Virus record (IMG/VR): IMGVR_UViG_3300029319_000033
Coordinates: 1 to 63,974 of that record
Strand: one strand, 5' to 3'
Source: a virus
Length of the DNA: 63,974 bases
The notes below the pieces were generated by a model that saw only the letters and a program-made list of their open reading frames with translations, did no database searches and was not told where the DNA came from. This document shows positions 9,016 through 53,844 of this stretch, in pieces. Every line of letters begins with the position of its first letter. Position 1 is the first letter of the stretch. The translations under genes were made by a program, and so were the position numbers.

Positions 9016-9057
9016 ATTGTTTTTATTTTATTTTTTTATTTTAATTACATATATATT

Positions 9058-20067: not shown

Positions 20068-20081
20068 ATTTTTATTTTTAA

Positions 20082-20121
20082 AATAATAGTGTGACTACAT
20101 ATATATAATCACACTATTATT
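20082..20121 (-). terminator. Strong hairpin terminator after the 279-residue virion gene
   Basis: AATAATAGTGTGA (20082-20094) pairs perfectly with TCACACTATTATT (20109-20121) across a 14-base loop. On the minus strand the stem is followed by TTTAAAAAT, and the hairpin lies 8 bases past the stop of the 20129-20968 gene. Confidence 0.8.
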
Positions 20122-20128
20122 GTACTTT

Positions 20129-40299: not shown

Positions 40300-40557
40300 T
40301 TATTCAACAAGAACTACATCTTGTGATTTAATAATTTTATAAAGGGTGTCTTCATAGCTGATACCATGTCCTGCATGCTTGTCATAGTATACTATGTCTT
40401 TATCTTTGACACCCTCGACCTTACTGCCGCAGCTGATAACCCTTGCTCTAATGTAACGATTATCTAGGTCTGTCTTTTCTGTGAAAATAAGTCCAGCAAT
40501 CTTTTTCTGTTCTTCTTTGATATCACTTACTATCAAATAAAAATTAATTGCCTTCAT
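40300..40557 (-). CDS. groES: Co-chaperonin GroES
   Basis: 85 residues, a little shorter than bacterial GroES (about 97). The opening INFYLIV strand, a Lys-rich mobile loop with the hydrophobic contact GLIF (22-25), the V-x-x-C-G turn (ARVISCGSKVEG) and the closing ILYK/VVLVE-type strands all fit. It overlaps the groEL 3' end by 14 bases, in the order groEL-groES, which is the reverse of the usual bacterial operon. It would cap the phage GroEL, or the host one, to fold virion proteins. Confidence 0.85.
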   Translation of the reverse strand: MKAINFYLIVSDIKEEQKKIAGLIFTEKTDLDNRYIRARVISCGSKVEGVKDKDIVYYDKHAGHGISYEDTLYKIIKSQDVVLVE

Positions 40558-42109
40558 TAGTCCTCATATTAGATATTACACAATCTGCAGATATAATGGT
40601 GGATACCACACTCACTGCATTTTTTAAAGCTGTTTTAGTTACAAGGACAGGATCTATAATTCCACCCTTGATCATATTTACATGCTCACCAGATACTACA
40701 TCAAATCCCCAGCCTTCCCTTAAAGGCTCAACTGAATCTTCAATGCTTGCATTTTCTAATATAGTTTGATATGGTGCACGAATAGCACTTAACAAAATAT
40801 TTTCACAGTCGTTAGAAGGGAGTATTTTTTGTGAAGCATTTAACAGTGCAATACCTCCACCAGAAATAATACCTTCTTTTAATGCTGCTTTAACAGCGTA
40901 TATTGCATCTTCAATGCGATCTTTCTTTTCTTTTAGTTCAACTTTAGAATCAGCACCTACTTTTACAATACCGACAGAACCAGATAACATACTAAGTCTA
41001 TCTTGTAATTTTCTTTTTAAGAAAGGATTTTTTTCTTTTTCTATTTTTTTATTAATTTCATCAACCCTTTCTGTAGTATCTTCTTTTAACTCTTTAATGG
41101 TTAATACTGTGTTTTTGTTGTCTGTTACAGACATTAAAACTTCACCTAAATGTTCAGGCTGTATTAAATCTAAATCATCACCAAGTTCTTCACTTATAAC
41201 TTTAGCTCCTGTTAAAAAAGCTAAATCTTCTATAGTATCATTTTTATAAGGTCCAAATCCGGGAGTATCAATAATATTAACATTAATGTTTCCCTTCACC
41301 TTATTCATCATTAAAGCTGTTTGTACTTGTTGTGCAACTGGTGCTACAATAAGTAAAGCTCTTTTATTTTTTATAACATGTTCTAGTATAGATTGTATCT
41401 TCCTAATACTTGTTATCTCTGAAGATACTATTAATACTAGTGGGTTTTCTAAAACTGCAGTCTCTCTATCTTTGTCTGTAACAAAGTAAGATGATTTTAA
41501 AGCACAATCTATTTGTACACCATCAACTGTTTCTACATAAGTTTCATTAGTTTCTGACTCCTCCATTAATACCACCCCATTCTTACCTACGATGTTGTAA
41601 GCCTCTGCTATCGTTTTACCAAGAGTGGTGTCGTTATTACAAGATATGGAGGCTACACTATCCAGCATGTCTCCTTTTACTTGTATGCTTTTTTTATCAA
41701 GGTAATCATTAACCTTTTTAAGTGCTGAATCTATACCTTGTTTTATTTGTCTTACAGTCTTAACTGTTTTAGCACAGTTAGCTTCTTTTATAAGGGATTC
41801 GGCAAGTACGATAGCTGTTGTAGTACCGTCACCTGCCTCCCTCACTGTATTTCTAGAAGCCTCTTTTATAAGAGTTGCTCCTATGTTCTCCACTGGATCA
41901 AACAAGACAACCGATTCCGCTACGGTTACTCCGTCTTTTGTGATCACTGGTTTTCCTCTAGCATCTTCATAAATTACACATTTACCAGATGCACCTAGAG
42001 TAGATTTAACTGCTTTAGCAAGTTTATCTACCCCAGCTGATATTCTGCCATTAGCTGAATCACCAAAGTTTAAATCTTTGACAATCTCACTAGGTTGATT
42101 GTATTCCAT
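40544..42109 (-). CDS. groEL: Chaperonin GroEL
   Basis: 521 residues against about 540 for bacterial GroEL. The nucleotide-binding residues are present: KSTLGASGKCV, ITKDGVTVA (Asp59), EAGDGTTTA (93-97) and GGGIALL. The apical domain is shorter and divergent, and the Gly-Gly-Met tail is missing; the protein ends in NMRTNEGN. An intact ATPase suggests an active but specialised ring. As a late gene upstream of all the structural genes it probably folds capsid or tail proteins. A four-fold TTAAA repeat precedes the start codon. Confidence 0.95.
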   Translation of the reverse strand: MEYNQPSEIVKDLNFGDSANGRISAGVDKLAKAVKSTLGASGKCVIYEDARGKPVITKDGVTVAESVVLFDPVENIGATLIKEASRNTVREAGDGTTTAIVLAESLIKEANCAKTVKTVRQIKQGIDSALKKVNDYLDKKSIQVKGDMLDSVASISCNNDTTLGKTIAEAYNIVGKNGVVLMEESETNETYVETVDGVQIDCALKSSYFVTDKDRETAVLENPLVLIVSSEITSIRKIQSILEHVIKNKRALLIVAPVAQQVQTALMMNKVKGNINVNIIDTPGFGPYKNDTIEDLAFLTGAKVISEELGDDLDLIQPEHLGEVLMSVTDNKNTVLTIKELKEDTTERVDEINKKIEKEKNPFLKRKLQDRLSMLSGSVGIVKVGADSKVELKEKKDRIEDAIYAVKAALKEGIISGGGIALLNASQKILPSNDCENILLSAIRAPYQTILENASIEDSVEPLREGWGFDVVSGEHVNMIKGGIIDPVLVTKTALKNAVSVVSTIISADCVISNMRTNEGN

Positions 42110-42747: not shown

Positions 42748-43002
42748 TTATTTGTAGTATTTATGCTGATAACTACTTTTACCCTCTTTTTTTGTTCCTT
42801 CGCCCTCGTTTCCTCTGTTAGATCTAACAGAAACAAACTTTCCTCGCTTATGATCAAAGTCTTTACCTGCAGCATCACTAGGATTTGCCCTAGCCTCACG
42901 TTGAGCATGTGCTTTTTTAGCTCTTCTTTCAGGAGATTTAGCAAAAGCCAAGTCTCTAGCAGCCTTATCTCTACGTGCTTGTGCAGATAGTCGTTGTTTC
43001 AT
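42748..43002 (-). CDS. Basic protein, first gene of the late arm
   Basis: 84 residues, very basic and polar (Arg/Lys/Ala/Glu, KSPERRAKKAHAQREARAN at about 23-41), probably helical then disordered. It is the first gene leftward of the regulatory region and lies 39 bases from the palindrome at 43041-43089. A longer ORF in another frame over the same bases is rejected as a shadow. It may be a nucleic-acid-binding protein; the family is not recognised. Confidence 0.6.
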   Translation of the reverse strand: MKQRLSAQARRDKAARDLAFAKSPERRAKKAHAQREARANPSDAAGKDFDHKRGKFVSVRSNRGNEGEGTKKEGKSSYQHKYYK

Positions 43003-43040
43003 ATTAATACTATTACATGTAAAAAATATTTTTTAAAATA

Positions 43041-43089
43041 GTGTAACAATAGGGTGTTATTCTTTATATCTTATACCCTAAAGTTACAC
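43041..43089 (-). promoter_or_regulatory. Palindromic control element A, upstream of the late arm
   Basis: Arms GTGTAACAATAGGGT and ACCCTAAAGTTACAC (15 bases, two mismatches) flank a 19-base centre. Read on the minus strand it closely matches element B at 52430-52478, including the core TTAGGGTATAAGATATA. It faces the first late gene at 43002. Confidence 0.75.
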
Positions 43090-43300
43090 TTTTTGTGTAA
43101 TGTTAGATATGTGGGGATTTTGGGTTGCAAATACTGTGCCAACTTTTGTTGCAAAACAAAAACCAAATTTTTTTCACCCAGTCCCCCACCTTTTTTATTA
43201 AAATTTTCGCAATTTTTTAGTTTTTTTATGGGATATATCACAATATTTTTACCTTTTTTTTAACATTTTTTTAATACTATCTGACTGTGTATTTGCCTAT

Positions 43301-43380
43301 GCGATTATGCGGTTTAAGCGTTGGGGTGTGGGGGGGCGTGTATAGCATTTGCGTAATCGGGTAAGCGAATATGCAACTCC
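43301..43380. other. G+C-rich island, candidate replication origin
   Basis: 42 of 80 bases are G or C by hand count, in a region otherwise roughly a quarter to a third G+C. GCGATTATGC (43301-43310) and GCGTAATCGG (43351-43360) form an imperfect inverted pair (8 of 10) around a G-run (GGGGTGTGGGGGGGCG, 43323-43338). The surrounding sequence is T-rich and easily melted. Position at the divergence of the two arms supports an origin, but no known initiator site is seen. Confidence 0.4.
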
Positions 43381-43410
43381 CCAAACTCTGTTAGTATATT
43401 CGTGTAGCCA

Positions 43411-43449
43411 ACTCACCGGTTAAATAATTTTTTGTATAGATAATATAGG
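43411..43449 (+). promoter_or_regulatory. Early promoter-like box, copy 1
   Basis: ACTCACC-GG-TTAAATAATTT-7 bases-AGATAATATA, with the same spacing as copies 2 and 3. It is followed by GGTGTAAC, a half-arm similar to the palindromes. It lies 137 bases before the first early gene. Confidence 0.75.
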
Positions 43450-43495
43450 TGTAACAAATAAAAAAAATAAATAAATTTTAAAACTAAACTAACTA

Positions 43496-43534
43496 ACTCA
43501 CCCATTAAATAATTTTATAATCAGATAATATATA
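43496..43534 (+). promoter_or_regulatory. Early promoter-like box, copy 2
   Basis: ACTCACC-CA-TTAAATAATTT-7 bases-AGATAATATA, ending 13 bases before the ATG at 43548. If it is a promoter, the transcript leader is very short. Confidence 0.8.
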
Positions 43535-43547
43535 TAAATAAAAAGAT

Positions 43548-43676
43548 ATGGAAAACTTAAGAGAATTATTTGAAAGCATGAACCCAAACTCAATCTTAGC
43601 TATGGAAAAAGCATGTGAAATAATAATTAAAAAAAGACAAGCAAAGCATAAGATACAGGATAAGACCCCTAACTAA
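43548..43676 (+). CDS. First early microprotein
   Basis: 42 residues (MENLRELFESMNPNSILAME at the start, then a Lys-rich helix). It follows box 2 by 13 bases and box 3 follows it, so it is transcribed at once. Residues 3-12 (NLRELFESMNP) recur at the start of the 60-residue zinc protein at 45026-45208. Likely a host-takeover peptide; function unknown. Confidence 0.65.
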   Translation: MENLRELFESMNPNSILAMEKACEIIIKKRQAKHKIQDKTPN

Positions 43677-43709
43677 TTTTAAACAACAAAACAAAACGTA
43701 CACTTTTAA

Positions 43710-43748
43710 ACTCACCTATTAAATAATTTATAATAAAGATAATATAAT
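43710..43748 (+). promoter_or_regulatory. Early promoter-like box, copy 3
   Basis: ACTCACC-TA-TTAAATAATTT-7 bases-AGATAATATA, 19 bases before the ATG at 43768. Confidence 0.8.
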
Positions 43749-43767
43749 TAAACAAACAGATAATAAA

Positions 43768-44007
43768 ATGAAAAGATTCGACAGACATACCAACACATTA
43801 CAAAGAGACGGTGACGATATCATATCATATCGCACAAGGGTTGCAACCATCATAGGCGATGAACTCCACGTTCATGGCAAGTATTCACCGACCACATCGA
43901 GACATATCAACTATGTTGCAGATGAATTGAACTTAACTAAGGTTAAATCTAGCGAATACACCGAGTCACCTAATTTTTACAAACTTGATAACTGGAAACA
44001 AATATGA
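43768..44007 (+). CDS. Early hypothetical protein
   Basis: 79 residues, basic, with several His and Arg in the first half (MKRFDRHTNTLQRDG and GKYSPTTSRHINYV), a likely alpha/beta fold. It is directly behind promoter-like box 3 and overlaps the next start by 4 bases (ATGA). No family recognised. Confidence 0.65.
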   Translation: MKRFDRHTNTLQRDGDDIISYRTRVATIIGDELHVHGKYSPTTSRHINYVADELNLTKVKSSEYTESPNFYKLDNWKQI

Positions 44008-44174
44008 TATATATACACGAAGAGAATATCCCAATAAATGTAAAAAAATCGAAGTATATGAATGAGCAAGAATATATCGAAGAAGTATTATTATGCAACT
44101 ACCCTCACCTATCGATACAAGAAATCCAAGAGATGGATGAAGATGAGAAAAGAATGCTAATGGGGTGGGACTAA
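44004..44174 (+). CDS. Small acidic early protein
   Basis: 56 residues, strongly acidic C-terminal half (EIQEMDEDEKRMLMGWD). It is coupled by an ATGA overlap to the gene before it. Acidic small early proteins often mimic DNA or bind host enzymes, but nothing more is visible here. Confidence 0.6.
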   Translation: MIYIHEENIPINVKKSKYMNEQEYIEEVLLCNYPHLSIQEIQEMDEDEKRMLMGWD

Positions 44175-44203
44175 ATAAAACAATAACAACTAAATAAACA
44201 AAC

Positions 44204-44527
44204 ATGAAAACAAGAACATACATAACAGAATTTGAAGACAATATGGCATGGGGCAAAGCCCCCTTCTATAAGAACCTCGCGAAAGGTGAAACAATGATGA
44301 TGAACAACACACCAATATTTAAAGAAGAATATAATCTAATGATAAGTAAAAGAGACTTCGGTTTGTTTGCGATGGGATTAAAACCGCATAGATATTGGAG
44401 TTTTAACGAGACTAAAAAATACTATGGTCTCAAAGGTAACAAAACAAAAGTAGCTGAAGATATCAAACAACTTTGTGAGGATTGGAAAGAATTTAAAAAG
44501 AAACATGTATCTTACTCGGAAGGGTAA
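44204..44527 (+). CDS. Early hypothetical protein
   Basis: 107 residues, mixed charge, Met/Asn/Lys-rich, with aromatic patches (LKPHRYWSFNETKKYYGLKG) and a helical Lys-rich C-terminus. Its leader, AACTAAATAAACAAACATG, is of the same A/C type as that before 44687. No motif recognised. Confidence 0.6.
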   Translation: MKTRTYITEFEDNMAWGKAPFYKNLAKGETMMMNNTPIFKEEYNLMISKRDFGLFAMGLKPHRYWSFNETKKYYGLKGNKTKVAEDIKQLCEDWKEFKKKHVSYSEG

Positions 44528-44553
44528 GATACTACAAACAAAACGACAAAATT

Positions 44554-44676
44554 ATGAAAAAAGTAAGATGTAATAATTGTATGAAAATATATACAGAAGA
44601 TACAGAAAACTATGAATATATTTATAAATGTATTAAGTGTAATACAGAAGAATATTTAATGGATATTAACAACTAA
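44554..44676 (+). CDS. Zinc-ribbon microprotein
   Basis: 40 residues. Two CxxC knuckles (CNNC at 6-9, CIKC at 26-29) separated by 16 residues make a minimal zinc ribbon. It may bind nucleic acid or a host polymerase. The ATG follows an A-rich leader. It is one of several zinc-knuckle microproteins in this arm. Confidence 0.65.
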   Translation: MKKVRCNNCMKIYTEDTENYEYIYKCIKCNTEEYLMDINN

Positions 44677-44686
44677 ACAAATAAAC

Positions 44687-44875
44687 ATGGAAACAATGAC
44701 AATTAGAGAACACGCAAAAAGATTCTGTTACGTTGTAATTAAGTGGCAAATCAATGGAAGAGAATGGACTACTCATGGACAATTTACTAGCAGAGATAAT
44801 GCTGAAAAATTTATTAAGGAAGAAAATATAAGTCAACTATCGCCTAACGTAACTTATGAAATAGTAGATATATGA
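44687..44875 (+). CDS. Early hypothetical protein
   Basis: 62 residues with a likely beta-beta-alpha-beta fold (CYVVIKWQINGREWTTHGQF, then a helix and a final strand). It overlaps the next start by 4 bases. Unknown function. Confidence 0.6.
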   Translation: METMTIREHAKRFCYVVIKWQINGREWTTHGQFTSRDNAEKFIKEENISQLSPNVTYEIVDI

Positions 44876-44988
44876 GATATAGAGAAATAGATGACATGTA
44901 TTATGTTGGGGACATGGTAGATGTAGACGGAAACGGATGGGTAGATAAAGAAACTTTTAAACTTATCTGTTTGGAATTGATTAAATAA
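44872..44988 (+). CDS. Microprotein with EF-hand-like loop
   Basis: 38 residues. The centre DVDGNGWVDKETF fits an EF-hand loop at positions 1, 3, 5, 6, 8 and 9, but position 12 is Thr rather than Glu, so binding may be weak. Helix-forming residues flank it. It is translationally coupled to the gene before (ATGA overlap). Confidence 0.55.
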   Translation: MRYREIDDMYYVGDMVDVDGNGWVDKETFKLICLELIK

Positions 44989-45025
44989 ATTATTATATTA
45001 CATAACACCAAAAACAAATACCATT

Positions 45026-45208
45026 ATGAAAGACCTTAAAGAACTATTCACTAGCATGAATCCGACTCCCTCGGATATCTTCCCAGAAGATACAAGGTGC
45101 TATACATGTAACAACTTTATCACAGATCTTGACCGACAAATTGCAAACGGTAACACAGATCAATGCACAGAATGTTTTATTGAAGAACTAATTGAATCAA
45201 AGAGATGA
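45026..45208 (+). CDS. Zinc-ribbon early protein
   Basis: 60 residues. The N-terminal LKELFTSMNP repeats that of the first early microprotein (43548). Two CxxC pairs follow (CYTC and CTEC, about 26-29 and 49-52) and an acidic helix. The shared N-terminal tag on an unrelated body suggests a common binding partner. It overlaps the next gene by 4 bases. Confidence 0.65.
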   Translation: MKDLKELFTSMNPTPSDIFPEDTRCYTCNNFITDLDRQIANGNTDQCTECFIEELIESKR

Positions 45209-45321
45209 AAAGAACAACAGTAAGAGAAATATGTCAATACTACGGTCAGCACTATGACAATGTAAAACACATGAAAGAATTTATTAAACAACTTAAAAAA
45301 CGATACAAAGATGAACAGTAA
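45205..45321 (+). CDS. Basic early microprotein
   Basis: 38 residues, helical and basic (MKRTTVREICQYYGQHYDNV then Lys-rich). It overlaps the genes on both sides (4 and 11 bases), a tightly packed arrangement. Unknown function. Confidence 0.55.
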   Translation: MKRTTVREICQYYGQHYDNVKHMKEFIKQLKKRYKDEQ

Positions 45322-45595
45322 ATATAACAAACTAATTGACCTATTAAAGTACCATGATTGGACATACGAATATTCAGATGACAACCGAGCGTATGAGTGG
45401 GGGTACAATAACAAAATAGAAATTGATAGGGAACTTGAAAGACTAGGTAGGGATGATCAAAGCCTCAAGATATACGAGGATGCTAAACCCGACTATCTTA
45501 AGACTAGTGAGTTCATTGATAGTGGTAGTCAACACCTACCAATGTCAAGTGAGGATAATGATTGGGATAATAAATTTGAATGGAAAATTAAATAA
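45311..45595 (+). CDS. Early hypothetical protein
   Basis: 94 residues, charged, Asp/Trp/Tyr-rich (YHDWTYEYSDDNRAYEWGYN near 15-34) with an acidic C-terminal half. It may be a small alpha/beta protein. It starts inside the previous gene. Family not recognised. Confidence 0.6.
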   Translation: MNSKYNKLIDLLKYHDWTYEYSDDNRAYEWGYNNKIEIDRELERLGRDDQSLKIYEDAKPDYLKTSEFIDSGSQHLPMSSEDNDWDNKFEWKIK

Positions 45596-45601
45596 TAAAC
45601 T

Positions 45602-45766
45602 ATGAATTGGCTTTGGGATGATCAAAAGAAAAAATCAAATATGGTTATAACTTACGAAGGTAAAATTGTACAATTTATAACTCCAATACATTGTTATGAA
45701 GTAATTGGAGTACAAACCAAATCTGAAGATAAACAAAATGCACAAATAAAATTTATATATGAATAA
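45602..45766 (+). CDS. Small beta protein, paralogue of 47335-47505
   Basis: 54 residues. KKSN, V-I-T, YEVIGVQT and an IKF-Y end line up with the 56-residue gene at 47335, so the two are duplicates. It is probably a small beta barrel. It overlaps the next start by 8 bases. Confidence 0.6.
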   Translation: MNWLWDDQKKKSNMVITYEGKIVQFITPIHCYEVIGVQTKSEDKQNAQIKFIYE

Positions 45767-46004
45767 TAAAACTATGACAATATACGATATAAAAAGAATG
45801 AGTGAGGACAAGGCTCCTTACTTCTTCGAGCGAAAGACATTAAAGTTTTTCAACCAAACATTAAAAGACTTTTCAGTCAAGAAACTAAATGAAGAAAGGT
45901 ACTATATTTCTGCACCCATGAGGGACTCGAGAGGTCACCAAGTGGGGGTAACTAAAAGAGTATTTGATGTAAGGACTAGAGAACTATTAAACACAGAACT
46001 ATGA
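45759..46004 (+). CDS. Early hypothetical protein
   Basis: 81 residues. A later ATG at 45774 (MTIYDIKRM) is an equally good start, giving 76 residues. It has a basic middle and a beta end (ISAPMRDSRGHQVGVTKRVF). It overlaps the next gene by 4 bases. Unknown. Confidence 0.55.
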   Translation: MNNKTMTIYDIKRMSEDKAPYFFERKTLKFFNQTLKDFSVKKLNEERYYISAPMRDSRGHQVGVTKRVFDVRTRELLNTEL

Positions 46005-46297
46005 TAGATAAGATATATGTAATAGCGACTACTTGGCGTGGTATTATTCAAGCAGATATGGAACATTTCTATACATCTGATGAAGCATTGGAAAGAATAA
46101 GTGAAATAGCAATTGAAAATGGTTTCACAAAACCAGACCCTGAAGATGACCCCAAAAGATATTTGTATGATTATAACGATTATTTAATTGAAAATGATAT
46201 TTGTCCTAAAATTGATGTATCATTACACACAATTAATTTAGGAGAGGAGTTATCCATGGATAGAACTTACTACCAACAAAGTTACAAAAGTATATGA
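46001..46297 (+). CDS. Acidic early hypothetical protein
   Basis: 98 residues, alpha/beta and acidic (PDPEDDPKRYLYDYNDYLIE at about 46-65). It opens with a strand IYVIATTW and ends in a basic tail. Coupled to its neighbours by overlaps of 4 bases. No family recognised. Confidence 0.6.
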   Translation: MIDKIYVIATTWRGIIQADMEHFYTSDEALERISEIAIENGFTKPDPEDDPKRYLYDYNDYLIENDICPKIDVSLHTINLGEELSMDRTYYQQSYKSI

Positions 46298-46527
46298 GTG
46301 ATATTAGAGAAATATTATGGGACAAGCAAACCCAAATCAAAGACATAAAAAGTCAAATAAAATACAACAATGAACATAACAAACGACTGATGAAAAAGTG
46401 GGAGGAACATTACAATAGCATGACTAACTATATGATAGGTAATGAAGAGTATGTTCTAAGCAAGATAGATTTTAGTTATATTCTTGAAATCATGAAAAAT
46501 AATAGACCATGTCCAAAGATAGATTAG
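46294..46527 (+). CDS. Helical early protein
   Basis: 77 residues, a long charged helix (about 1-45) with a short C-terminal region. It overlaps the genes on both sides. Coiled-coil assembly is likely; function unknown. Confidence 0.55.
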   Translation: MSDIREILWDKQTQIKDIKSQIKYNNEHNKRLMKKWEEHYNSMTNYMIGNEEYVLSKIDFSYILEIMKNNRPCPKID

Positions 46528-46661
46528 TAGTAAATAAGATAGGGTCATTAGTTCATGTAATCTTTGAGGATAACTTTCCAAGATATAGACTACTTGTAAA
46601 AGGAGTAAAGACTAACAAAAGTCTAGTAAACAAAGAAATAAGATGGTGGTACTATGGGTAA
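46509..46661 (+). CDS. Basic beta microprotein
   Basis: 50 residues, basic, mainly strands (LVVNKIGSLVHVIFED, RYRLLVKGVK) and a Trp-Trp-Tyr-Tyr-Gly end. It overlaps the previous gene by 19 bases and the SNase gene by 8. Unknown function. Confidence 0.55.
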   Translation: MSKDRLVVNKIGSLVHVIFEDNFPRYRLLVKGVKTNKSLVNKEIRWWYYG

Positions 46662-47046
46662 GTCAATAACTATAATATGTGTAGGTCTTTTATTGATCTA
46701 CTACATCATCTCAAGTAGAGATACAAGAGTAACAAGAGTTATAGATGGTGATACATTTATAACAAACAAAGGGGACAGGGTGCGACTCATTGGAGTTGAT
46801 GCACCCGAACTCCCAAGTTTAAGAGGTATTGAATCTAAGATGTATCTACACCAATTAATAGATAACAAGGTGGTGATACTTGAAAGAGATGGGATATCAG
46901 ACAACAAGGACAAGTATGGTAGATTACTCAGGTATGTGTATTTAAACAAAAAAGATGTTAACTTACAGATGTTAAAGAGTGGATATGCAAAACCATACTT
47001 ATATTTTAATTTTGAAAAACTAAACCAATATAAATACTATGATTAA
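46654..47046 (+). CDS. Membrane-anchored thermonuclease (SNase family)
   Basis: 130 residues. Residues 4-20 form a hydrophobic anchor or uncleaved signal. The nuclease has RVIDGDTF (28-35), RLIGVDAPE (44-52) and DKYGRLL (86-92), giving the expected Asp33, Arg44, Asp49, Glu52 and Arg90. The family is calcium-dependent and cuts DNA or RNA. An exported anchor would place it outside the inner membrane. It could destroy superinfecting or free DNA, or scavenge nucleotides. It overlaps the next gene by 8 bases. Confidence 0.85.
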   Translation: MGKSITIICVGLLLIYYIISSRDTRVTRVIDGDTFITNKGDRVRLIGVDAPELPSLRGIESKMYLHQLIDNKVVILERDGISDNKDKYGRLLRYVYLNKKDVNLQMLKSGYAKPYLYFNFEKLNQYKYYD

Positions 47047-47317
47047 AAATTTACTAATCGGGGCGATGCTATACACGTCCCCGAGCGATTCAGACAAAAT
47101 AACAAATTACGAATATAAAATAAATGAAATGATATTAACAATCGAAGACTTGCATGAGTGGATCCGCAATGACGTTGACAACGGATCTTTAGATCCAAGA
47201 CTTGGAGAGATCTACCAAGAGAACTACGAGCGACTGATCAAAGATCTCAACGAACTCAAAGTAGTGCAGTACCCTTCGGACTTCATTCCATTGAGAGCAA
47301 AAGCATTAAGTAAATAA
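47039..47317 (+). CDS. Early helical protein with possible signal segment
   Basis: 92 residues. A short hydrophobic start (MIKNLLIGAMLYTSP) could be a weak signal, followed by a helical acidic body. Downstream of the SNase by an 8-base overlap, it may act with it in the envelope. Family not recognised. Confidence 0.55.
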   Translation: MIKNLLIGAMLYTSPSDSDKITNYEYKINEMILTIEDLHEWIRNDVDNGSLDPRLGEIYQENYERLIKDLNELKVVQYPSDFIPLRAKALSK

Positions 47318-47342
47318 ACTAAAACCAAAAACCAATGAAACA
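47317..47342 (+). repeat. 26-bp A/C-rich leader repeat, copy 1
   Basis: AACTAAAACCAAAAACCA followed by ATGAAACA, identical to 47504-47529. It spans the start codon of the 47335 gene. Confidence 0.8.
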
Positions 47343-47505
47343 TAAAAAATCAAATATTTTTATAACTAATAGGGGTGTACTTGGGACATTTCTAAACGAT
47401 GGGTACTACTATGAAGTAGTAGGTGTGCAAACATACTACCCATACCCAAAACCATCTAAGCATCAAAACAAGTACAACTCAGAAATTAAATTTAAATATA
47501 GATAA
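47335..47505 (+). CDS. Small beta protein, paralogue of 45602-45766
   Basis: 56 residues. KHKKSN, FITN, YYYEVVGVQT and a final IKFKYR match the 54-residue gene 1.7 kb upstream. A Tyr/Pro-rich insert (YYPYPKPSKHQNK) distinguishes it. It is preceded by a 26-bp leader that recurs before the next gene. Function unknown. Confidence 0.6.
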   Translation: MKHKKSNIFITNRGVLGTFLNDGYYYEVVGVQTYYPYPKPSKHQNKYNSEIKFKYR

Positions 47506-47529
47506 CTAAAACCAAAAACCAATGAAACA
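47504..47529 (+). repeat. 26-bp A/C-rich leader repeat, copy 2
   Basis: Identical to 47317-47342. It includes the start codon of the 47522 gene and begins at the stop of the previous gene. Confidence 0.8.
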
Positions 47530-47725
47530 ATTAAACAAAGTAACTAAGAAAGAAGTCATGGCTGCAATACAGTATTTGCATACTGAGGGATTTATAGATA
47601 ATATGAGAAGTGATGAAGCGCACTACACTAAAATTTTACTTAGGAAAGTAGCTAATGACTTCAATGTAAGATTAGTGGTAAATGTTCCTCATAAAAAACA
47701 TAAAGGATTAACAATCCCCTTGTAA
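47522..47725 (+). CDS. Basic early protein
   Basis: 67 residues, helical then beta, basic (KQLNKVTKKEVMAAIQYL at 2-19). Shape resembles a small winged or ribbon-helix DNA binder, but no clear motif. It overlaps the next start by one base. Confidence 0.55.
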   Translation: MKQLNKVTKKEVMAAIQYLHTEGFIDNMRSDEAHYTKILLRKVANDFNVRLVVNVPHKKHKGLTIPL

Positions 47726-48312
47726 TGGAAATAAGTATAGATAGTTTATTAAAGAGTTGCCACAAGTGTGGAGACCTTTTAAGTGGCACTAAATCATTAA
47801 CCAATGGAGTAACCAATACTTTTAGAGAATTGTCTTTACAAGAAATTTTTGAAACAATGCATGGTTATTGTGGAGATACCGATTGGGACTATAGTGGAGA
47901 AATCATAAGACTAAAGACTAAATTTAAATTAGAAGGTATAGATGATCGTAGACCTTTCTGTTATAGATGTCTTAAAGAAGAAGATATTCACGAAGGTCCT
48001 CTTCATGAAGATCCTGAGGAGTATTTACTCTTTATTGAAAACGAAATTAAGGAAATTGAGACATTTAAATTATGTGATATAGATCCAATGAATATTAAAA
48101 AGTTGAGTGATTTAAAAGATATCAGGGATGAATTAAAAGTCATTGTATTTCCTGAAGTTCCATCTGTTACTGAGTATGGTATGTATTTAAGAGAAAAACA
48201 TGATGAAGTAAAGTATCAAGAGTTTTTATGTAAAGAAAAAGATGATGAACATAAATACAGAATGGAAGAAATTGAAAAGCTAATAGAAAATGAGGCTACT
48301 AAAAAATGTTAG
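47725..48312 (+). CDS. Zinc-binding early protein
   Basis: 195 residues. CHKC (12-15) and CYRC (about 79-82) could make a zinc site across a 60-residue insert. The rest is helical and acidic, ending KKC. It may bind a host protein or nucleic acid. It overlaps the next microprotein by 7 bases. Confidence 0.6.
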   Translation: MEISIDSLLKSCHKCGDLLSGTKSLTNGVTNTFRELSLQEIFETMHGYCGDTDWDYSGEIIRLKTKFKLEGIDDRRPFCYRCLKEEDIHEGPLHEDPEEYLLFIENEIKEIETFKLCDIDPMNIKKLSDLKDIRDELKVIVFPEVPSVTEYGMYLREKHDEVKYQEFLCKEKDDEHKYRMEEIEKLIENEATKKC

Positions 48313-48386
48313 AAATCATAATAACACTAATATTATTTGCAGTTATATTTTTTGGAATATTTAAAATTATGAATGTAGATGACTGA
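48306..48386 (+). CDS. Membrane microprotein
   Basis: 26 residues, one hydrophobic span (IIITLILFAVIFFGIFKI). ATG follows AAAAA and it overlaps the genes on both sides by 7 and 8 bases. Likely a single-pass inner-membrane peptide. Confidence 0.5.
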   Translation: MLEIIITLILFAVIFFGIFKIMNVDD

Positions 48387-48585
48387 CAGAAAAGCACCTA
48401 AATACACTGATTTATCAGATCTCCAAGAATCAACAAAAAGAGGGATACTGATTGATCATGGATATAGTTTTGTATTCTCCACCGACATGAGAGATTGGAT
48501 AATGCAAAAGAAAAGAAGACAAGAATTAGAATCACGAGAACGAATAAGAAATGGAAAAGAAAGAAGACCTTATAAAAAAAGATAA
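48379..48585 (+). CDS. Basic early protein
   Basis: 68 residues with a Lys/Arg-rich helical tail (QKKRRQELESRERIRNGKE). It overlaps the genes on both sides. Probably binds nucleic acid; unknown family. Confidence 0.55.
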   Translation: MTDRKAPKYTDLSDLQESTKRGILIDHGYSFVFSTDMRDWIMQKKRRQELESRERIRNGKERRPYKKR

Positions 48586-48838
48586 ACAGAAATTTGAAAA
48601 TAACAAATGGGGTTTGTACGCTGAAATATTTACAGAACTCAGACACAAGAAGGATGAGGTCAATATGATTAAAGATCTACTTGAGAGACTATCTGAGAAC
48701 AAAGCAATAACAACCACAGATATTAACTTGATTAATAAAGTTATGAATGGTAGTTTAGCTTTAAGGTTGCAGAGGATCTCAACAAGTGATAGATATTTGA
48801 AAGCAATGAGTAAAAAACGTAAACAAAAACAACTATGA
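48551..48838 (+). CDS. Helical early protein
   Basis: 95 residues, basic and helical throughout, with a Ser/Gln/Lys-rich end. It starts 35 bases inside the previous gene in another frame. Both ORFs have ATG starts and normal composition, so I keep both. Unknown function. Confidence 0.5.
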   Translation: MEKKEDLIKKDKQKFENNKWGLYAEIFTELRHKKDEVNMIKDLLERLSENKAITTTDINLINKVMNGSLALRLQRISTSDRYLKAMSKKRKQKQL

Positions 48839-49107
48839 GTGATTTTGTAATTTCTAGCGATGACTTAATCAATAAAGAAGACCCTGACATAAGGGATGCA
48901 ATAGCATGGTTTAGATTGCATGACGTGGAAGCATACACAGATGAGTATGGTGGATTCTACGTAGTAATATCTAGGGTGTTGCATGTGCAACTAAATGATG
49001 ATGACATACACGTATTGATATCTCCATCTGAAGTATCTTACAGAGCAGATTTATGGAGGGAGTTTAAAGGTAAGGATAAAAAATCTAGAAAAAATGGGAA
49101 AGTTTAA
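48835..49107 (+). CDS. Early alpha/beta protein
   Basis: 90 residues, acidic, with a strand-rich middle (YTDEYGGFYVVISRVLHVQL near 36-55) and a Lys-rich end. It overlaps the previous gene by 4 bases and the next by 14. Unknown. Confidence 0.55.
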   Translation: MSDFVISSDDLINKEDPDIRDAIAWFRLHDVEAYTDEYGGFYVVISRVLHVQLNDDDIHVLISPSEVSYRADLWREFKGKDKKSRKNGKV

Positions 49108-49627
49108 AGATGATTTGAACATAGGTCAGAAGTATGAGGATATCATACTTAAGAGGGCAAAGAAAACTTATCCTCTAGCCTACATACAAAAGGGTAAGTT
49201 TAAGTATTGGGATATCAATATCCCAGAAGTAAATATATCTCTGGAGGTAAAGTATGATGAAAGGAATCAAACATCAGGCAACATACTTATAGAGTTTGAG
49301 TGTAATGATAAACCTTCAGGTATTACTACAAGTAAAGCAGACTTTTGGATCTTGTTTGATAAACCTGATGGAGACCCTATATGGTTTTTAACTGAAGGTA
49401 TTCGAAGGTGTATTTATGAAAATAGTTTTAAAACAAAAATAATTAAAGGGGATAAGGTAGGAGATCCGTATGATAAAAAAGTATACCTAATTAAAAAAGA
49501 GATATTATACAAATATAAAATGCCTAAGAATGCATGGATTGAAAAGGTAAAGCAGAACAACGGTACAACACCTTATGCTTCTTACGGATCTAAATCACCA
49601 AATCAAATACATGAGTTTTATGACTAA
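49094..49627 (+). CDS. PD-(D/E)XK nuclease-like protein
   Basis: 177 residues. KYWDINIPE (about 37-45) followed by SLEVKYDER (about 49-57) gives the Asp ... Glu-x-Lys core of the PD-(D/E)XK superfamily, with a preceding conserved-looking Glu in GQKYEDIIL. The size fits a phage endonuclease or resolvase. It lies outside the recombination block, among early microproteins, so host-DNA attack is also possible. Confidence 0.7.
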   Translation: MGKFKDDLNIGQKYEDIILKRAKKTYPLAYIQKGKFKYWDINIPEVNISLEVKYDERNQTSGNILIEFECNDKPSGITTSKADFWILFDKPDGDPIWFLTEGIRRCIYENSFKTKIIKGDKVGDPYDKKVYLIKKEILYKYKMPKNAWIEKVKQNNGTTPYASYGSKSPNQIHEFYD

Positions 49628-49805
49628 TAGAAACGTAATATTCTTGATCATACTAAATAAAGCACTTGACTTATCTTCACGTCTATTAAACAAGATCTTA
49701 AGGAGGAGATGGTTTAAGTTAGCTAACAAATTAGTTATTCTTAGGAAAAAGTATGTAATAAGTAATATGTTAAAACTAAACAAAAAAGAAAATGATAAAA
49801 CCTGA
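49620..49805 (+). CDS. Basic early microprotein
   Basis: 61 residues from the ATG at 49620, very basic (LLNKILRRRWFKLANKLVIL). Amphipathic, may bind membrane or nucleic acid. It overlaps the gene before by 8 bases and the next by 14. Confidence 0.5.
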   Translation: MTNRNVIFLIILNKALDLSSRLLNKILRRRWFKLANKLVILRKKYVISNMLKLNKKENDKT

Positions 49806-49929
49806 ATGGACTTTTATGCTTGATAAACAATTTATTGCATGGCAATGTGTGTGTGGTGGGCTAAACTCTATGTCAAGAGAAAAATGTGGTAAGTGTGGTA
49901 AAATTAAAGAAGTAAAAAAATATTATTAA
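49792..49929 (+). CDS. Zinc-ribbon microprotein
   Basis: 45 residues. CVCG (19-22) and CGKCG (32-36) form a zinc-ribbon pair. The rest is short and basic. Similar in build to the 44554 gene but not clearly homologous. Confidence 0.6.
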   Translation: MIKPEWTFMLDKQFIAWQCVCGGLNSMSREKCGKCGKIKEVKKYY

Positions 49930-49930
49930 T

Positions 49931-50104
49931 ATGGAAACACAATTATTTATATACGGAATATGTTTGATAGGTGTATTTAGTATGCTAAGTTTGCAATCTT
50001 ATAAAGAATGGTTAGACAAAAAAGATAACATAGTCAGCTTCATAATTTACATGATTATAAATATTATTACTATCGTAGCTTTCATAGCACAGTTTAGTAA
50101 TTAA
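49931..50104 (+). CDS. Two-span membrane microprotein
   Basis: 57 residues. Hydrophobic spans at about 5-20 (LFIYGICLIGVFSMLS) and 35-54 (IVSFIIYMIINIITIVAFIA) are joined by a charged turn. It is the last gene before a terminator, so it ends an operon. It may act on the host membrane or on superinfection. Confidence 0.55.
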   Translation: METQLFIYGICLIGVFSMLSLQSYKEWLDKKDNIVSFIIYMIINIITIVAFIAQFSN

Positions 50105-50108
50105 AGAC

Positions 50109-50128
50109 ACTACATAGTGTAGTTTTTT
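50109..50128 (+). terminator. Rho-independent terminator ending the first early operon
   Basis: ACTACA-TAG-TGTAGT followed by TTTTT, 5 bases past the stop of the 49931 gene. Confidence 0.75.
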
Positions 50129-50156
50129 CATAGTGTTGTTTAGTTGAACAAGTGTT

Positions 50157-50186
50157 TGCAGATTCACTTTAAAAAAAAAATCTGCA
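50157..50186. other. Hairpin just upstream of the tRNA
   Basis: TGCAGATT (50157-50164) pairs with AATCTGCA (50179-50186) over a 14-base A-rich loop. It could be a tRNA-processing or promoter-proximal structure; there is no T-run. Confidence 0.5.
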
Positions 50187-50189
50187 CAC

Positions 50190-50277
50190 TGTAAGGTGGT
50201 GGAACAGGAAGACACGCCATCCTATCTCGATGGTGACAATTTCGGTTGTCGTGGAGGTTCGAACCCTCCCCTTACAG
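50190..50277 (+). tRNA. Class II tRNA with unusual anticodon (ATC by position)
   Basis: A complete cloverleaf folds by eye. The acceptor is TGTAAGG/CCTTACA (7 of 7), the D arm GTG/CAC, the anticodon stem CCATC/GATGG, a long variable arm GACAA/TTGTC, and the T arm GGAGG-TTCGAAC-CCTCC. The discriminator is G; CCA is not encoded. The anticodon loop is CTATCTC, so positions 34-36 read ATC. That would decode Asp codons, yet the long variable arm belongs to Ser, Leu or Tyr tRNAs, and the D arm looks Leu-like. The gene may be a real tRNA of unusual identity, a decoy or a decayed copy. It stands alone between the terminator and the next gene. Confidence 0.85.
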
Positions 50278-50310
50278 CTATTAAATTAAACCAAAAACCT
50301 GTAATTATAT

Positions 50311-50730
50311 ATGGAAGATCAAGATAGAATAAACTTCGTTTTAGACCACTACAAAACGGAGATATGTAAAGACCAAAGTTCATTTGGCAAATGCGATTTC
50401 CAAATCTATTCGGACTATACCTCCGATGGATACAAACTCACAGTCGCAAAATACAATGAAAATATTTTAAGTAAGGATGGAGGCATACCAACTATTCTTA
50501 AGGATCCGGAAGGATCTTCAGGTAAAGTATTCCTTAATGAGCATGTGTTTCACAACAATTACGATTTATCCTTAGTGTTTATTCAAGAACTCAGGAAGGG
50601 TGATCTATCAATTTATATTGATGAAGAGATATATGAGGATGCAATGATAGATAGCTATTTGGAGCAAGAGTATGAGCGTATTATAGAACTTCAAGAAAAA
50701 GATGATAAACTATATGATAATTTTATATGA
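50311..50730 (+). CDS. Early acidic hypothetical protein
   Basis: 139 residues, alpha/beta with an acidic C-terminal third (EEIYEDAMIDSYLEQEYERI). It starts 33 bases after the tRNA with a typical A/C-rich leader and overlaps the next gene by 4 bases. Family not recognised. Confidence 0.6.
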   Translation: MEDQDRINFVLDHYKTEICKDQSSFGKCDFQIYSDYTSDGYKLTVAKYNENILSKDGGIPTILKDPEGSSGKVFLNEHVFHNNYDLSLVFIQELRKGDLSIYIDEEIYEDAMIDSYLEQEYERIIELQEKDDKLYDNFI

Positions 50731-51020
50731 CTGATAAGGAAAAAAATGAGATTGCTGACATGGTAATAAGGAAGATGTTGGAAGCTAAAGCAAAGATGGA
50801 GGCTGACCTTTTTAACGTCAACGATGTACTATTTACTTTACTCAACGCAAGACTTACAGAAGAAGAATTGTTGGTGGGTGAACTAGCAAGGCTCATGACT
50901 TTATTAAACACATACGAGGATAAGGAAGAGTATGAGAAAGCAGCAATAATAAAAAATAAAATAGACAAAATTAATAATAAGTTAGATCAAATTGATAATC
51001 AAAAAAGAGGAGAATTATGA
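50727..51020 (+). CDS. Helical protein with UVR-like motif
   Basis: 97 residues. The second half (LLNTYEDKEEYEKAAIIKNK, about 66-85) resembles a UVR motif, the helical pair that mediates UvrB/UvrC-type contacts, and the first half is also helical. The similarity is short. It could bind a host repair or protease adaptor. It overlaps the next gene by 4 bases. Confidence 0.5.
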   Translation: MTDKEKNEIADMVIRKMLEAKAKMEADLFNVNDVLFTLLNARLTEEELLVGELARLMTLLNTYEDKEEYEKAAIIKNKIDKINNKLDQIDNQKRGEL

Positions 51021-51352
51021 TTAAATTATTAGGTGCAATTTTGGTAACTGCAACAGTATATAATGCAGTGCCAGAGCAAACCGACTCAACACCATTCATC
51101 ACCGCATCAGGATCCATTATAAACCCTGATTGTCCGGAGGTACACCGTTGGGTTGCAGTATCACAAGATATGTTAAAAGAAGGTTGGGAGTTTGGTGAAT
51201 GTATAGAGGTAAGAGGTGCAGGGAATCTGGATGGTGTCTGGCAGATACAAGATGTAATGAATAGACGTTATAAAAAATCGATTGACTTTCTTGTAGAGAA
51301 TACGAGGAGATTGGGGAAATGGAGAGGTGTTAGAATTAAACTCGTTAGCTAA
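51017..51352 (+). CDS. Secreted 3D/double-psi-barrel-like protein
   Basis: 111 residues. A hydrophobic N-terminus (KLLGAILVTATVYNAVP) suggests export. The rest has the 3D/RlpA-type layout: WVAVSQDML, GWEFGECIEVRG, LDGVWQIQDVMN and a final Ile-Asp. These folds occur in MltA-type lytic transglycosylases and cell-wall proteins, and the Asp of IQDVMN and IDF would be the conserved acids. It may cut or bind peptidoglycan during exit or entry. It ends one base before the beta-propeller gene. Confidence 0.65.
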   Translation: MIKLLGAILVTATVYNAVPEQTDSTPFITASGSIINPDCPEVHRWVAVSQDMLKEGWEFGECIEVRGAGNLDGVWQIQDVMNRRYKKSIDFLVENTRRLGKWRGVRIKLVS

Positions 51353-52435
51353 ATGGAAACAGAAGAATTAAATAATTTCTTTTATTATTCTAATAGCTTA
51401 CCAAAAATTTTAAAAAAATTAAATGGTTCTTTAGTATTTAGTACCTATCAAGCAAATAGATTAATATTTTTAAGTTCTCCGGACGGTGAAAAACTAATTA
51501 AATATGCTAAAAGTTTTGATAAACCTATGGGTATTGCATTTGATGAAAAAAAATCAAAGATTGCATTAGCTAGTAAGACATGTATAGACGTTTTTACGAG
51601 TAGTGAAGCACTAGCAAAAAATTACCCTGAGAAAAAAAATAAATTCGATTATTTATTTATACCTCAAGTAAAATACCAAACCGGATATTTAGACACTCAT
51701 GAAATGGAGTATGGATCTGACGGTGAATTATATTTTGTTAACACTATGTTTTCTTGTATTAGCAAACTTAGTGCTGAAAAACATTTTGAATTTTATTGGA
51801 AACCATATTTTATAAAAGAGTTAACTCCTACAGATCAATGTCATTTAAATGGAATGGCAATGAAAGATGGTAAACCTTCCTATGTAACTATTTTTGAAAG
51901 AAAGACAAGTACATTTGGTTGGAAAAAATCAAAGGGAGATGGGGGATTATTGATGGATGTTAATTCTAATAAGGTAATTTTAGATAATTTACAGATGCCA
52001 CATTCTCCTGTTTATTTTGATAACAAAATTTATTTTTTATCCTCTGGTAGTGGAACAGTAAATTGTTATGATATCAAAACAAAAGAAACAAAATTAATTT
52101 GTAGAATGAATACATTTGTTAGGGGGTTACAAGTCATTGACGATTATTTAATCGTAGCCGCATCTAAAATGAGGGAAGGAATTAAAGAAACATTACAACA
52201 TTTAAATTACAAATCTAAAGATACTTATTGTGGTATTTATATTATTGATAGATTTAGTGGTAAAAAAATTGGTGGAATATCTTATGTTGATTTGGTATCA
52301 GAAATTTTTGACGTTAAATTATTAAACAATATAAAAGTACCAGCAATATTAAATGATAATGACACATTATCTGATAAAAATATTATGGCAGATCCAAATT
52401 TAAATTTTTGGATTAAGAAAAAGAACAAAGTGTAA
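51353..52435 (+). CDS. TIGR03032/DUF4915-type beta-propeller protein
   Basis: 360 residues. The order of motifs matches the TIGR03032 family from memory: STYQANRLI (30-38), KPMGIAFDE (57-65), FIPQ, DTHEME (114-119), VNTMFSC (129-135), CHLNGMAM (163-170), GW, MPHSPV (215-220), SGSG, RGLQV, ASKMREG and CGIYIID. The family is normally chromosomal and of unknown function, often beside oxygenase or glycan genes. The gene has no such partner here. It looks intact and full-length, sits between the barrel protein and the HTH/sigma operon, and its stop codon lies in element B. It is likely a moron gene that modifies the host. Confidence 0.85.
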   Translation: METEELNNFFYYSNSLPKILKKLNGSLVFSTYQANRLIFLSSPDGEKLIKYAKSFDKPMGIAFDEKKSKIALASKTCIDVFTSSEALAKNYPEKKNKFDYLFIPQVKYQTGYLDTHEMEYGSDGELYFVNTMFSCISKLSAEKHFEFYWKPYFIKELTPTDQCHLNGMAMKDGKPSYVTIFERKTSTFGWKKSKGDGGLLMDVNSNKVILDNLQMPHSPVYFDNKIYFLSSGSGTVNCYDIKTKETKLICRMNTFVRGLQVIDDYLIVAASKMREGIKETLQHLNYKSKDTYCGIYIIDRFSGKKIGGISYVDLVSEIFDVKLLNNIKVPAILNDNDTLSDKNIMADPNLNFWIKKKNKV

Positions 52436-52478
52436 CATTAGGGTATAAGATATATAGAATAAGAGGCTAATGTTACAT
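52430..52478 (+). promoter_or_regulatory. Palindromic control element B, upstream of the HTH/sigma operon
   Basis: GTAACATTAG pairs perfectly with CTAATGTTAC (10 bases) around a 25-base centre with TATAAGATATA. The left arm contains the stop of the beta-propeller gene and the right arm contains the ATG of the HTH gene. The minus strand of element A (43041-43089) matches it over about 36 of the first 40 bases. Confidence 0.8.
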
Positions 52479-53099
52479 AAAACTTTAAATAGAAATTTAG
52501 ATTATTTGCATCGAAAAAGGTTTAAATATAAAAAAGAACCTACTACAGATGTTCCAACTAAAAAGTATTATTGGGGGTCTTATTATAAAAATGGTACATA
52601 TCAGGATTATAATTTATTTTATGGTAATGCTAAGATAACCACATTTAAAGCATTAGTATGGCATATTGAAGTTTTAAGGTATATAAATTTAGATTGGGAT
52701 AAAGATGACTTTAGGAAAATAATTTACTTTATAGCTGAAATTAAAAATGGTTTTGTTACCTTTGAAATTAACACAAGTTATTTAGATAGATATATAGACA
52801 ATGCGTTGTCTAATGATTTTTCTTACAAACCTATAAACAGAAAAAAAATAATAGTATTTAAAGATGGAACCGGTCTGTCTAGAAAAGAAAAATTAAAAAT
52901 AGTTGGTGAGGTAGTAGGTAGATCTAAGATTGTTGATAATGAAATCATTTATGAATGCATGTTAGAAATCAACAAAGACAAAAGAAAGATAACCATATCT
53001 AATATAGCTAAAATATTAAATTGTTCTAGAATGTCCATATACAGGAATATGGATACTGAGTTGAAGGTTGAGAGGGATATGCTTAATGAAAAAGTATAA
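52470..53099 (+). CDS. HTH protein paired with the sigma factor
   Basis: 209 residues. The N-terminus is basic and aromatic, the middle alpha/beta. The C-terminal 35 residues contain a helix-turn-helix (RKITISNIAKILNCSRMSIY, about 169-188) of the resolvase/regulator type. The start codon lies inside palindrome B, so it may regulate itself. It overlaps the sigma gene by 14 bases. It could be a transcription switch protein acting with the sigma factor, or a replication initiator. Confidence 0.7.
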   Translation: MLHKTLNRNLDYLHRKRFKYKKEPTTDVPTKKYYWGSYYKNGTYQDYNLFYGNAKITTFKALVWHIEVLRYINLDWDKDDFRKIIYFIAEIKNGFVTFEINTSYLDRYIDNALSNDFSYKPINRKKIIVFKDGTGLSRKEKLKIVGEVVGRSKIVDNEIIYECMLEINKDKRKITISNIAKILNCSRMSIYRNMDTELKVERDMLNEKV

Positions 53100-53844
53100 C
53101 GCAAATACATATAGAATATACAAAGAGGACTTAAGTAATAATGTTAGTAGAGTAGACTTTGAAAAGACATACGATGAACTTACAAAAGATGAATTGATAG
53201 TAAGGTTTTTACCTTTAGTTGAAAATATAGCGAAGAAATTTTCAACTGCATCTCAGGCTTCAGGTGTTATGGATATACTAGATCTTATACAGGAGGGTAG
53301 TGTAGGACTTATAAAAGCAATAGAAAGGATAGATTGGAACATATTTAATAAATCTAAGTATAAGGAAAATACCATGAGATCTTTTCTTACAAAAAGAATT
53401 AGAGGTGCAATAAGGAGGGCAATAGATATTAATAGAGCAGACATGAGGATCCCAGAGCATAAGTTGCAAGAGATCCGAAAGAACTTTGGTAAAGATGAGA
53501 AAATGGTGGCTATGTTTTTCAACTCCATATTTTTATCAGTTGATGAATATGAAGATAAAGAAGACATATCTTTAGAGGTAGAGGATAAATCAGAGCCAAA
53601 GAATATGGATTTGTTAAATGTTTACTTATCAGGTTTGTTAAGGAAGCATTTAAACAGTAAAGAATATCAAGTGTTGAGGTTGAGTTATGGTCTTGATTGT
53701 AATAAGCATTCAGCACAAGAGATAGCAGAGGCATTAAATTTGAAAGGATCTAGTGCTTATGTTAAAGTTTCTAAGTTAAAGAAACAAGCGGTTGAAAAGC
53801 TAATACAAAATGTAGATCCTTCACAAGTTCTAGATTACACTTGA
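53086..53844 (+). CDS. RNA polymerase sigma factor
   Basis: 252 residues from the ATG at 53086; a TTG 18 bases upstream is less likely. Region 2 is clear (ILDLIQEGSVGLIKAIERID, then FLTKRIRGAIRRAID) and region 4 ends the protein (RLSYGLD, then a helix-turn-helix AQEIAEALNLKGSSAYVKVS). The large region 1.1 is missing, as in alternative and phage sigma factors. It would redirect host polymerase to phage promoters, probably those with element A/B or the TA-rich leader. Confidence 0.85.
   Translation: MKKYNANTYRIYKEDLSNNVSRVDFEKTYDELTKDELIVRFLPLVENIAKKFSTASQASGVMDILDLIQEGSVGLIKAIERIDWNIFNKSKYKENTMRSFLTKRIRGAIRRAIDINRADMRIPEHKLQEIRKNFGKDEKMVAMFFNSIFLSVDEYEDKEDISLEVEDKSEPKNMDLLNVYLSGLLRKHLNSKEYQVLRLSYGLDCNKHSAQEIAEALNLKGSSAYVKVSKLKKQAVEKLIQNVDPSQVLDYT

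What the first reader, a model, noticed from the sequence alone, without database searches (positions are those of the whole stretch)
43041..52478. Two copies of a palindromic element face the late arm and the HTH/sigma operon
Element A (43041-43089, minus strand) and element B (52430-52478, plus strand) share GTGTAAC, TTAGGGTATAAGATATA and GAATAA. Both have inverted arms, and each reads towards the first gene it controls. B spans the stop of one gene and the ATG of the HTH gene. I infer a shared promoter/operator: the HTH protein or sigma factor may control itself and turn on late genes (GroEL, capsid). No third copy was seen. Because the copies are inverted relative to each other, recombination could also flip the 9.4 kb between them, but no recombinase is visible.
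Basis: partly seen in the sequence, partly recalled or inferred. Interest (0 to 1): 0.78.

Follow-up and report, generated by a model that had tools for sequence, protein, structure and literature searches.

The report
Phage regulator's self-targeting late-gene operator
Two near-identical 49-bp palindromes in an uncultured bacterial virus are, very probably, docking sites for a virus-made DNA-binding protein: one covers the start of that protein's own gene and the other sits just upstream of the structural genes, and the same layout recurs in every related virus examined.

Summary
Two 49-bp copies, 42/49 identical, lie at 43041-43089 (-) and 52430-52478 (+), with 0 expected by chance. Both recur in relatives: all 40 records searched carry the element, normally 2-4 copies. 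One copy (H) always covers the ATG of the 209-aa HTH gene. Another (L1) precedes the first late gene. About half of the genomes have further copies (L2) near early promoters. All 125 non-H copies are inverted relative to H and upstream of it.

The best reading is a long dyad operator read by the HTH protein itself. The window alone among 102 relatives has lost the invariant Arg188-Thr189 of the recognition helix, and it alone has GTGTAAC instead of GTGTGAC, in all four half-sites. The sigma factor loses no conserved residue.

The late promoter is a separate motif (KTAAAAWTT-N9-YGTRATWRTATA) downstream. Its spacing to the element falls in classes about one helical turn apart, which suggests an activator touching RNA polymerase. 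The same promoter without the palindrome follows the sigma gene in many relatives. Binding over its own ATG suggests autorepression.

Inversion is refuted and an RNA hairpin is not supported. The logic resembles phi29 p4 or Mu Mor, but the protein fits no known family. All functional claims are computational.

The parts
43041..43089 (-). Element A = site L1: 49-bp dyad operator upstream of the late operon (half-sites 43078-43089 GTGTAACTTTAG and 43041-43052 CTATTGTTACAC)
52430..52478 (+). Element B = site H: 49-bp dyad operator over the HTH start codon (half-sites 52430-52441 GTGTAACATTAG and 52467-52478 CTAATGTTACAT; ATG 52470-52472 inside the right half-site)
43005..43037 (-). Two-part late promoter motif KTAAAAWTT-N9-YGTRATWRTATA, 23 nt from element A to YGTRAT; best hit in the window with a leave-window-out matrix (24.4 bits)
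42748..43002 (-). First gene of the late operon (84 aa, MKQRLSAQARRDKAARDL...); similar small Lys/Arg-rich genes follow L1 in relatives
40544..42109 (-). GroEL-like chaperonin gene of the late operon (phrog_5725)
52470..53099 (+). HTH protein, 209 aa, proposed binder; C-terminal helix-turn-helix about 154-208, recognition helix 187-193 with M188-S189 instead of the invariant R-T
53068..53844 (+). Sigma-70-family factor, 258 aa (regions 2 and 4), overlapping the HTH gene
50280..50312 (+). Same promoter motif without a palindrome, ATG at 50311; would feed the genes leading to HTH and sigma (17.7 bits)
51353..52435 (+). DUF4915 gene whose stop codon lies in the left arm of element B

Best explanation
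The palindromes are operators for the phage's own 209-aa HTH protein. Each is a dyad of two long half-sites (GTGTGACAWTAGSNNNTTA in relatives, GTGTAAC-type in the window) whose 12-bp outer arms lie 24-26 bp apart, which a dimer, or a pair of dimers, would occupy. At L1 the bound protein sits just upstream of a phage-type late promoter, on a fixed face of the helix, and most likely helps RNA polymerase (with the phage sigma factor) start the 43-kb structural operon. At H it sits on its own start codon and most likely shuts down, or caps, synthesis of itself and of the sigma factor encoded next to it. Shown by sequence comparison: the conservation, the positions, the orientation, the promoter motif, the spacing classes, and the joint change of recognition helix and half-site. 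Inferred: that the protein binds, that it dimerises, that it activates at L1 and represses at H, that the phage sigma reads the promoter motif, and the transcript start positions.
For: Site H overlaps the HTH ATG in frame in the relatives that hold the region, except three carrying a gene insertion (HNH-like) that keeps an intact site upstream. 40/40 records carry the element. Of 34 HTH positions at least 98% conserved in 102 distinct relatives, the window deviates at five; three are shared with its sister L003 (GTGTGAC sites) and the only private ones are R188M and T189S in the recognition helix, while the sigma factor deviates at 0 of 41. The window alone has A at half-site position 5, in 4/4 arms; other odd cases are register errors, one masked site and one weak partial hit. 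L1: 22/29 sites carry YGTRATWRTATA within 70 nt (0.27 expected by shuffling), H 0/83; KTAA sits 19 nt before it with 96-100% conservation of TAA; spacings cluster at 18-24, 29-33 and 40-44 nt (R = 0.53 at a 10.5-bp period, p = 7e-4 against uniform). The same motif lies 1.4-2.5 kb past H, behind sigma, in about 43 of 95 loci without a palindrome. AlphaFold gives a confident HTH.
Against: No binding, footprint or transcript data exist. The helix/half-site co-change is one evolutionary event, and a search for a second GTGTAAC lineage found only chance matches in coding DNA. The spacing statistic is not corrected for relatedness, and seven of 29 L1 sites lack a recognisable promoter motif. The promoter motif works, by inference, without the palindrome elsewhere, so the element could delay or tune rather than activate. 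L2 sites have no late promoter motif (that is how the class was defined) and remain unexplained. In the window the L1 promoter motif lies close to the ATG, so the true start site matters for the geometry.
Confidence: 0.68

Rival explanations
1. The element itself is the promoter of the phage sigma factor: the arms and inner GTAA are read by sigma, and transcripts start inside or just after the element; at H this would give a leaderless HTH mRNA.
For: Inner-right RTAA is invariant or nearly so in every site class, and at H it lies about as far from the ATG as GTAA does in the free promoters. HTH has no intergenic space upstream in the window.
Against: A separate promoter motif follows L1 and also occurs alone elsewhere. 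The inner GTAA is mirrored by TTA on the other side, i.e. part of the dyad. The half-site base changed in the window although the sigma factor lost no conserved residue.
Confidence: 0.15
2. Architectural reading: HTH proteins bound at H and at L1/L2 hold the two ends of the early region together, looping it out and shutting it off at the switch to late expression.
For: Sites occur only at the borders of, or within, the early region, always inverted, upstream of H and 3.8-15 kb from it. L2 sites sit next to early-promoter-like motifs (33/69 within 150 bp, 3.3 expected).
Against: Simple separate regulation of each operon gives the same layout. L1 spacing to its own promoter is helically phased, which points to local contact.
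Confidence: 0.1
3. The palindrome acts as RNA: a hairpin in the transcript that controls translation of HTH or terminates transcription.
For: The H site covers the start codon, and L1/L2 sites have A-tracts before and T-tracts after the arms.
Against: RNAalifold finds only 5 consensus pairs and a covariation term of -0.13; arms vary without compensation (A.A at position 8, C.A at position 4), and the only compensated pair is the window's own change. The H copy has no T-tract.
Confidence: 0.04
4. The inverted copies are recombination sites and the 9.4-kb segment flips.
For: The copies are inverted; the HTH resembles that of resolvases/invertases weakly (Pfam HTH_7).
Against: In 61 loci 97.8% of coding bases between sites run with HTH, so no flipped state is seen. 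The protein matches no recombinase catalytic domain.
Confidence: 0.01

Closest known systems
Bacillus phage phi29 regulator p4
   Same: Phage early protein that binds inverted repeats beside early and late promoters, activates the late promoter and represses early ones; it reads a single base per half-site by Arg-G and uses A-tracts (PMC3100819). Here too an Arg is tied to a half-site G and A-tracts flank L1/L2.
   Different: No match between the proteins was found by sequence or fold; arms 25 bp apart rather than 15, one site over its own ATG, and a phage sigma factor encoded alongside.
Phage Mu Mor / C activators
   Same: Dimeric phage activator on a dyad element directly upstream of a middle or late phage promoter, helping RNA polymerase (Mor, PMC4390567).
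   Different: Mor uses 5-bp repeats in a 16-bp element at -43.5 with host sigma-70; here a 49-bp dyad lies further upstream at variable, turn-spaced distances.
Phage P2 Ogr / P4 Delta late activators (from own knowledge)
   Same: Short dyad bound upstream of late promoters.
   Different: Zinc-finger proteins at about -55; not tested here.
CRP class I activation (from own knowledge)
   Same: Sites tolerated at whole-turn steps upstream.
   Different: Global host regulator with a short 22-bp site; unrelated protein.

Membership tests
phi29 p4-type early/late switch regulators | Inverted-repeat site upstream of the late promoter | tested here: met
   L1 site upstream of a conserved promoter motif in 22/29 sites
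phi29 p4-type early/late switch regulators | Same protein represses early promoters | tested here: inconclusive
   L2 sites lie near early-promoter-like motifs but the window has no L2, and repression is untested
phi29 p4-type early/late switch regulators | Homologous protein or fold (N-hook) | tested here: inconclusive
   No p4 match in PDB sequence or fold searches; absence from a list does not exclude it
Bacterial/phage HTH transcription factors binding a dyad operator | HTH domain | tested here: met
   Pfam HTH_7/HTH_11 just below cut-off; AlphaFold C-terminal HTH matches DtxR/TetR-type HTHs, Z up to 6.2
Bacterial/phage HTH transcription factors binding a dyad operator | Recognition helix co-varies with operator half-site | tested here: met
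   R188M/T189S with GTGTGAC to GTGTAAC, single event
Bacterial/phage HTH transcription factors binding a dyad operator | Direct binding to the site | not testable with these tools
   needs EMSA or footprint
Invertible DNA segment with recombinase | Flipped and unflipped states among relatives; recombinase | tested here: not met
   Fixed orientation in 61 loci, 125/125 sites; no recombinase catalytic domain found in the HTH protein
Structured RNA element | Compensatory base-pair changes | tested here: not met
   covariation term -0.13, 5 pairs only

The most novel reading that the evidence does not exclude
A previously undescribed phage switch: a new HTH protein family and its partner sigma factor in which long dyad operators bracket the entire early region, so that one protein at the same time caps its own operon, blocks early promoters and, at whole-turn distances, drives the late promoter, possibly by physically bridging the two ends of the early region.
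Probability: 0.15. Interest if true: 0.75.

Novelty: new variant of a known kind. Interest (0 to 1): 0.58.

Why it matters
This gives a testable transcription programme (operator, reader protein, late promoter, sigma factor) for a large group of uncultured, mostly environmental phages: 393 stretches in IMG/VR encode relatives of the HTH protein. The HTH and sigma proteins have no tblastn match in 50,697 phage records, and the HTH protein falls in no PHROG family beyond weak HTH matches. The window also offers a natural specificity switch, one protein and its four half-sites changed together, that makes protein-DNA recognition directly testable with natural sequences only.

Tried and rejected
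RNA hairpin: consensus folding gave almost no covariation. DNA inversion: no flipped state in 61 loci. A second, independent lineage with GTGTAAC sites: 13 pattern matches in IMG/VR, all chance matches without an HTH or sigma relative. Cultured relatives as a source: Elemovirus and MW202828 share the terminase, but the parts read (49,000 of 59,846 and 24,851 of 60,850 bases) hold no element hit above chance and no clear HTH relative (one marginal hit, E 2e-4). Fold of the N-terminal domain, predicted alone (pLDDT 88): no PDB match with Z of 5 or more, which does not prove a new fold. TGCTATACAC as an early promoter motif: no more frequent in the window than by chance. Literature searches for promoters of Bacteroidota phages of this group found nothing relevant.

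Full report
Observation. Both copies are present exactly as described. They are 42/49 identical; the 33-bp core is found twice against zero in shuffles, and no third copy exists in this 63,974-bp virus record. A model trained without the window still finds B and A as its two best hits there.

Identity of the phage. The window encodes a terminase (phrog_6681), portal (phrog_6547), GroEL, primase/helicase, ribonucleotide reductase and a sigma-70-family factor. The terminase is closest to the uncultured podovirus MW202828 (62%) and Flavobacterium Elemovirus (45%), with Cellulophaga phages among the other matches, so a Bacteroidota host is likely (inference). The sigma and HTH proteins have no tblastn match among 50,697 phage records.

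The element is conserved. Searching IMG/VR with the sigma factor gave 47 loci, and with the HTH alignment 393 relatives, of which 80 were kept. In relatives the consensus is GTGTGACAWTAG-N24-26-CTAWTGTCACA. All 40 records searched whole have it, with 2-4 copies wherever the interval is complete. Site H overlaps the HTH start codon: the ATG inside the right arm is the in-frame start. In L028, L029 and L048 an inserted gene that looks like an HNH endonuclease separates the intact site from the HTH reading frame. Site L1 lies directly upstream of the first late gene. Further copies, L2, lie between early genes, often next to early-promoter-like sequences. All 125 non-H copies are inverted relative to H and lie upstream of it, 3.8-15 kb away.

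DNA, not RNA. Consensus folding keeps five pairs with a covariation term of -0.13. The dyad extends inwards: TAG-N4-TTA on the left is mirrored by TAA-N4-CTA on the right.

Who reads it. Across 102 distinct relatives the HTH protein has 34 positions at least 98% conserved. The window deviates at five, three of them shared with its closest relative L003, which keeps GTGTGAC. The two private changes are R188M and T189S, both in the recognition helix (187-193 of the AlphaFold model). The sigma factor deviates at none of 41. In the same genome, and only there, all four half-sites read GTGTAAC instead of GTGTGAC. This is one event, but it falls exactly where a specificity change is expected.

What it does at L1. 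Downstream of L1 is a two-part motif, KTAAAAWTT-N9-YGTRATWRTATA, in 22/29 L1 sites against 0.27 expected, and in 0/83 H sites. The window's copy is the best match in the whole record with a matrix that never saw it (24.4 bits). Distances from element to YGTRAT fall into 18-24, 29-33 and 40-44 nt, about one helical turn apart. That is the signature expected when a bound activator must face RNA polymerase. The test treats sites as independent, which they are not fully. The same motif, without a palindrome, occurs 1.4-2.5 kb past H, directly behind the sigma gene, in about 43 of 95 loci, and at 50300 in the window. So the motif is a promoter class of its own, probably that of the phage sigma factor (inference), and the palindrome is an added control of the late operon.

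What it does at H. A protein bound over its own start codon, in an operon without space for another promoter (window: the upstream stop codon lies in the element), most simply blocks transcription of HTH and sigma, i.e. negative feedback (inference). An internal leaderless promoter is the main alternative.

Known systems. phi29 p4 (PMC3100819) and Mu Mor (PMC4390567) work alike: phage dyad-binding activators at middle or late promoters, p4 also repressing early promoters. The HTH protein is in no PHROG or NCBIfam family above weak HTH matches, and its N-terminal domain has no convincing PDB match. It is therefore a new variant of a known kind of regulation; membership in those families is not claimed.

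Noticed in passing
window 43395-43463, 43480-43548, 43694-43762: Three direct repeats AACTCACCNATTAAATAATTT...AGATAATATA reading rightward before the early genes: probably an array of early promoters.
   Followed up: partly
L028, L029, L048 about 8088-9183: A gene that looks like an HNH endonuclease (read by eye from its C-terminal end) is inserted at the start of the HTH gene, leaving the site H operator intact upstream and cutting the HTH frame off from its usual start.
   Followed up: no
window 20067-20129 (-): A second copy of the late-type promoter motif (18.9 bits) overlaps a perfect 13-bp inverted repeat AATAATAGTGTGA/TCACACTATTATT inside the late arm.
   Followed up: partly
window 50190-50278: tRNA gene called tRNA-Asp with the unusual anticodon ATC by ARAGORN, immediately upstream of the palindrome-free phage promoter at 50300.
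   Followed up: no
L082 4166-4214 and other L2 sites: L2 copies point against the early genes and are flanked by A- and T-tracts; no late promoter motif follows them. Their role is open.
   Followed up: partly
BFVD A0A516MIB4: Only strong structural relative of the HTH protein among viral models (E 2e-10, TM 0.6, 27% identity), unnamed.
   Followed up: no
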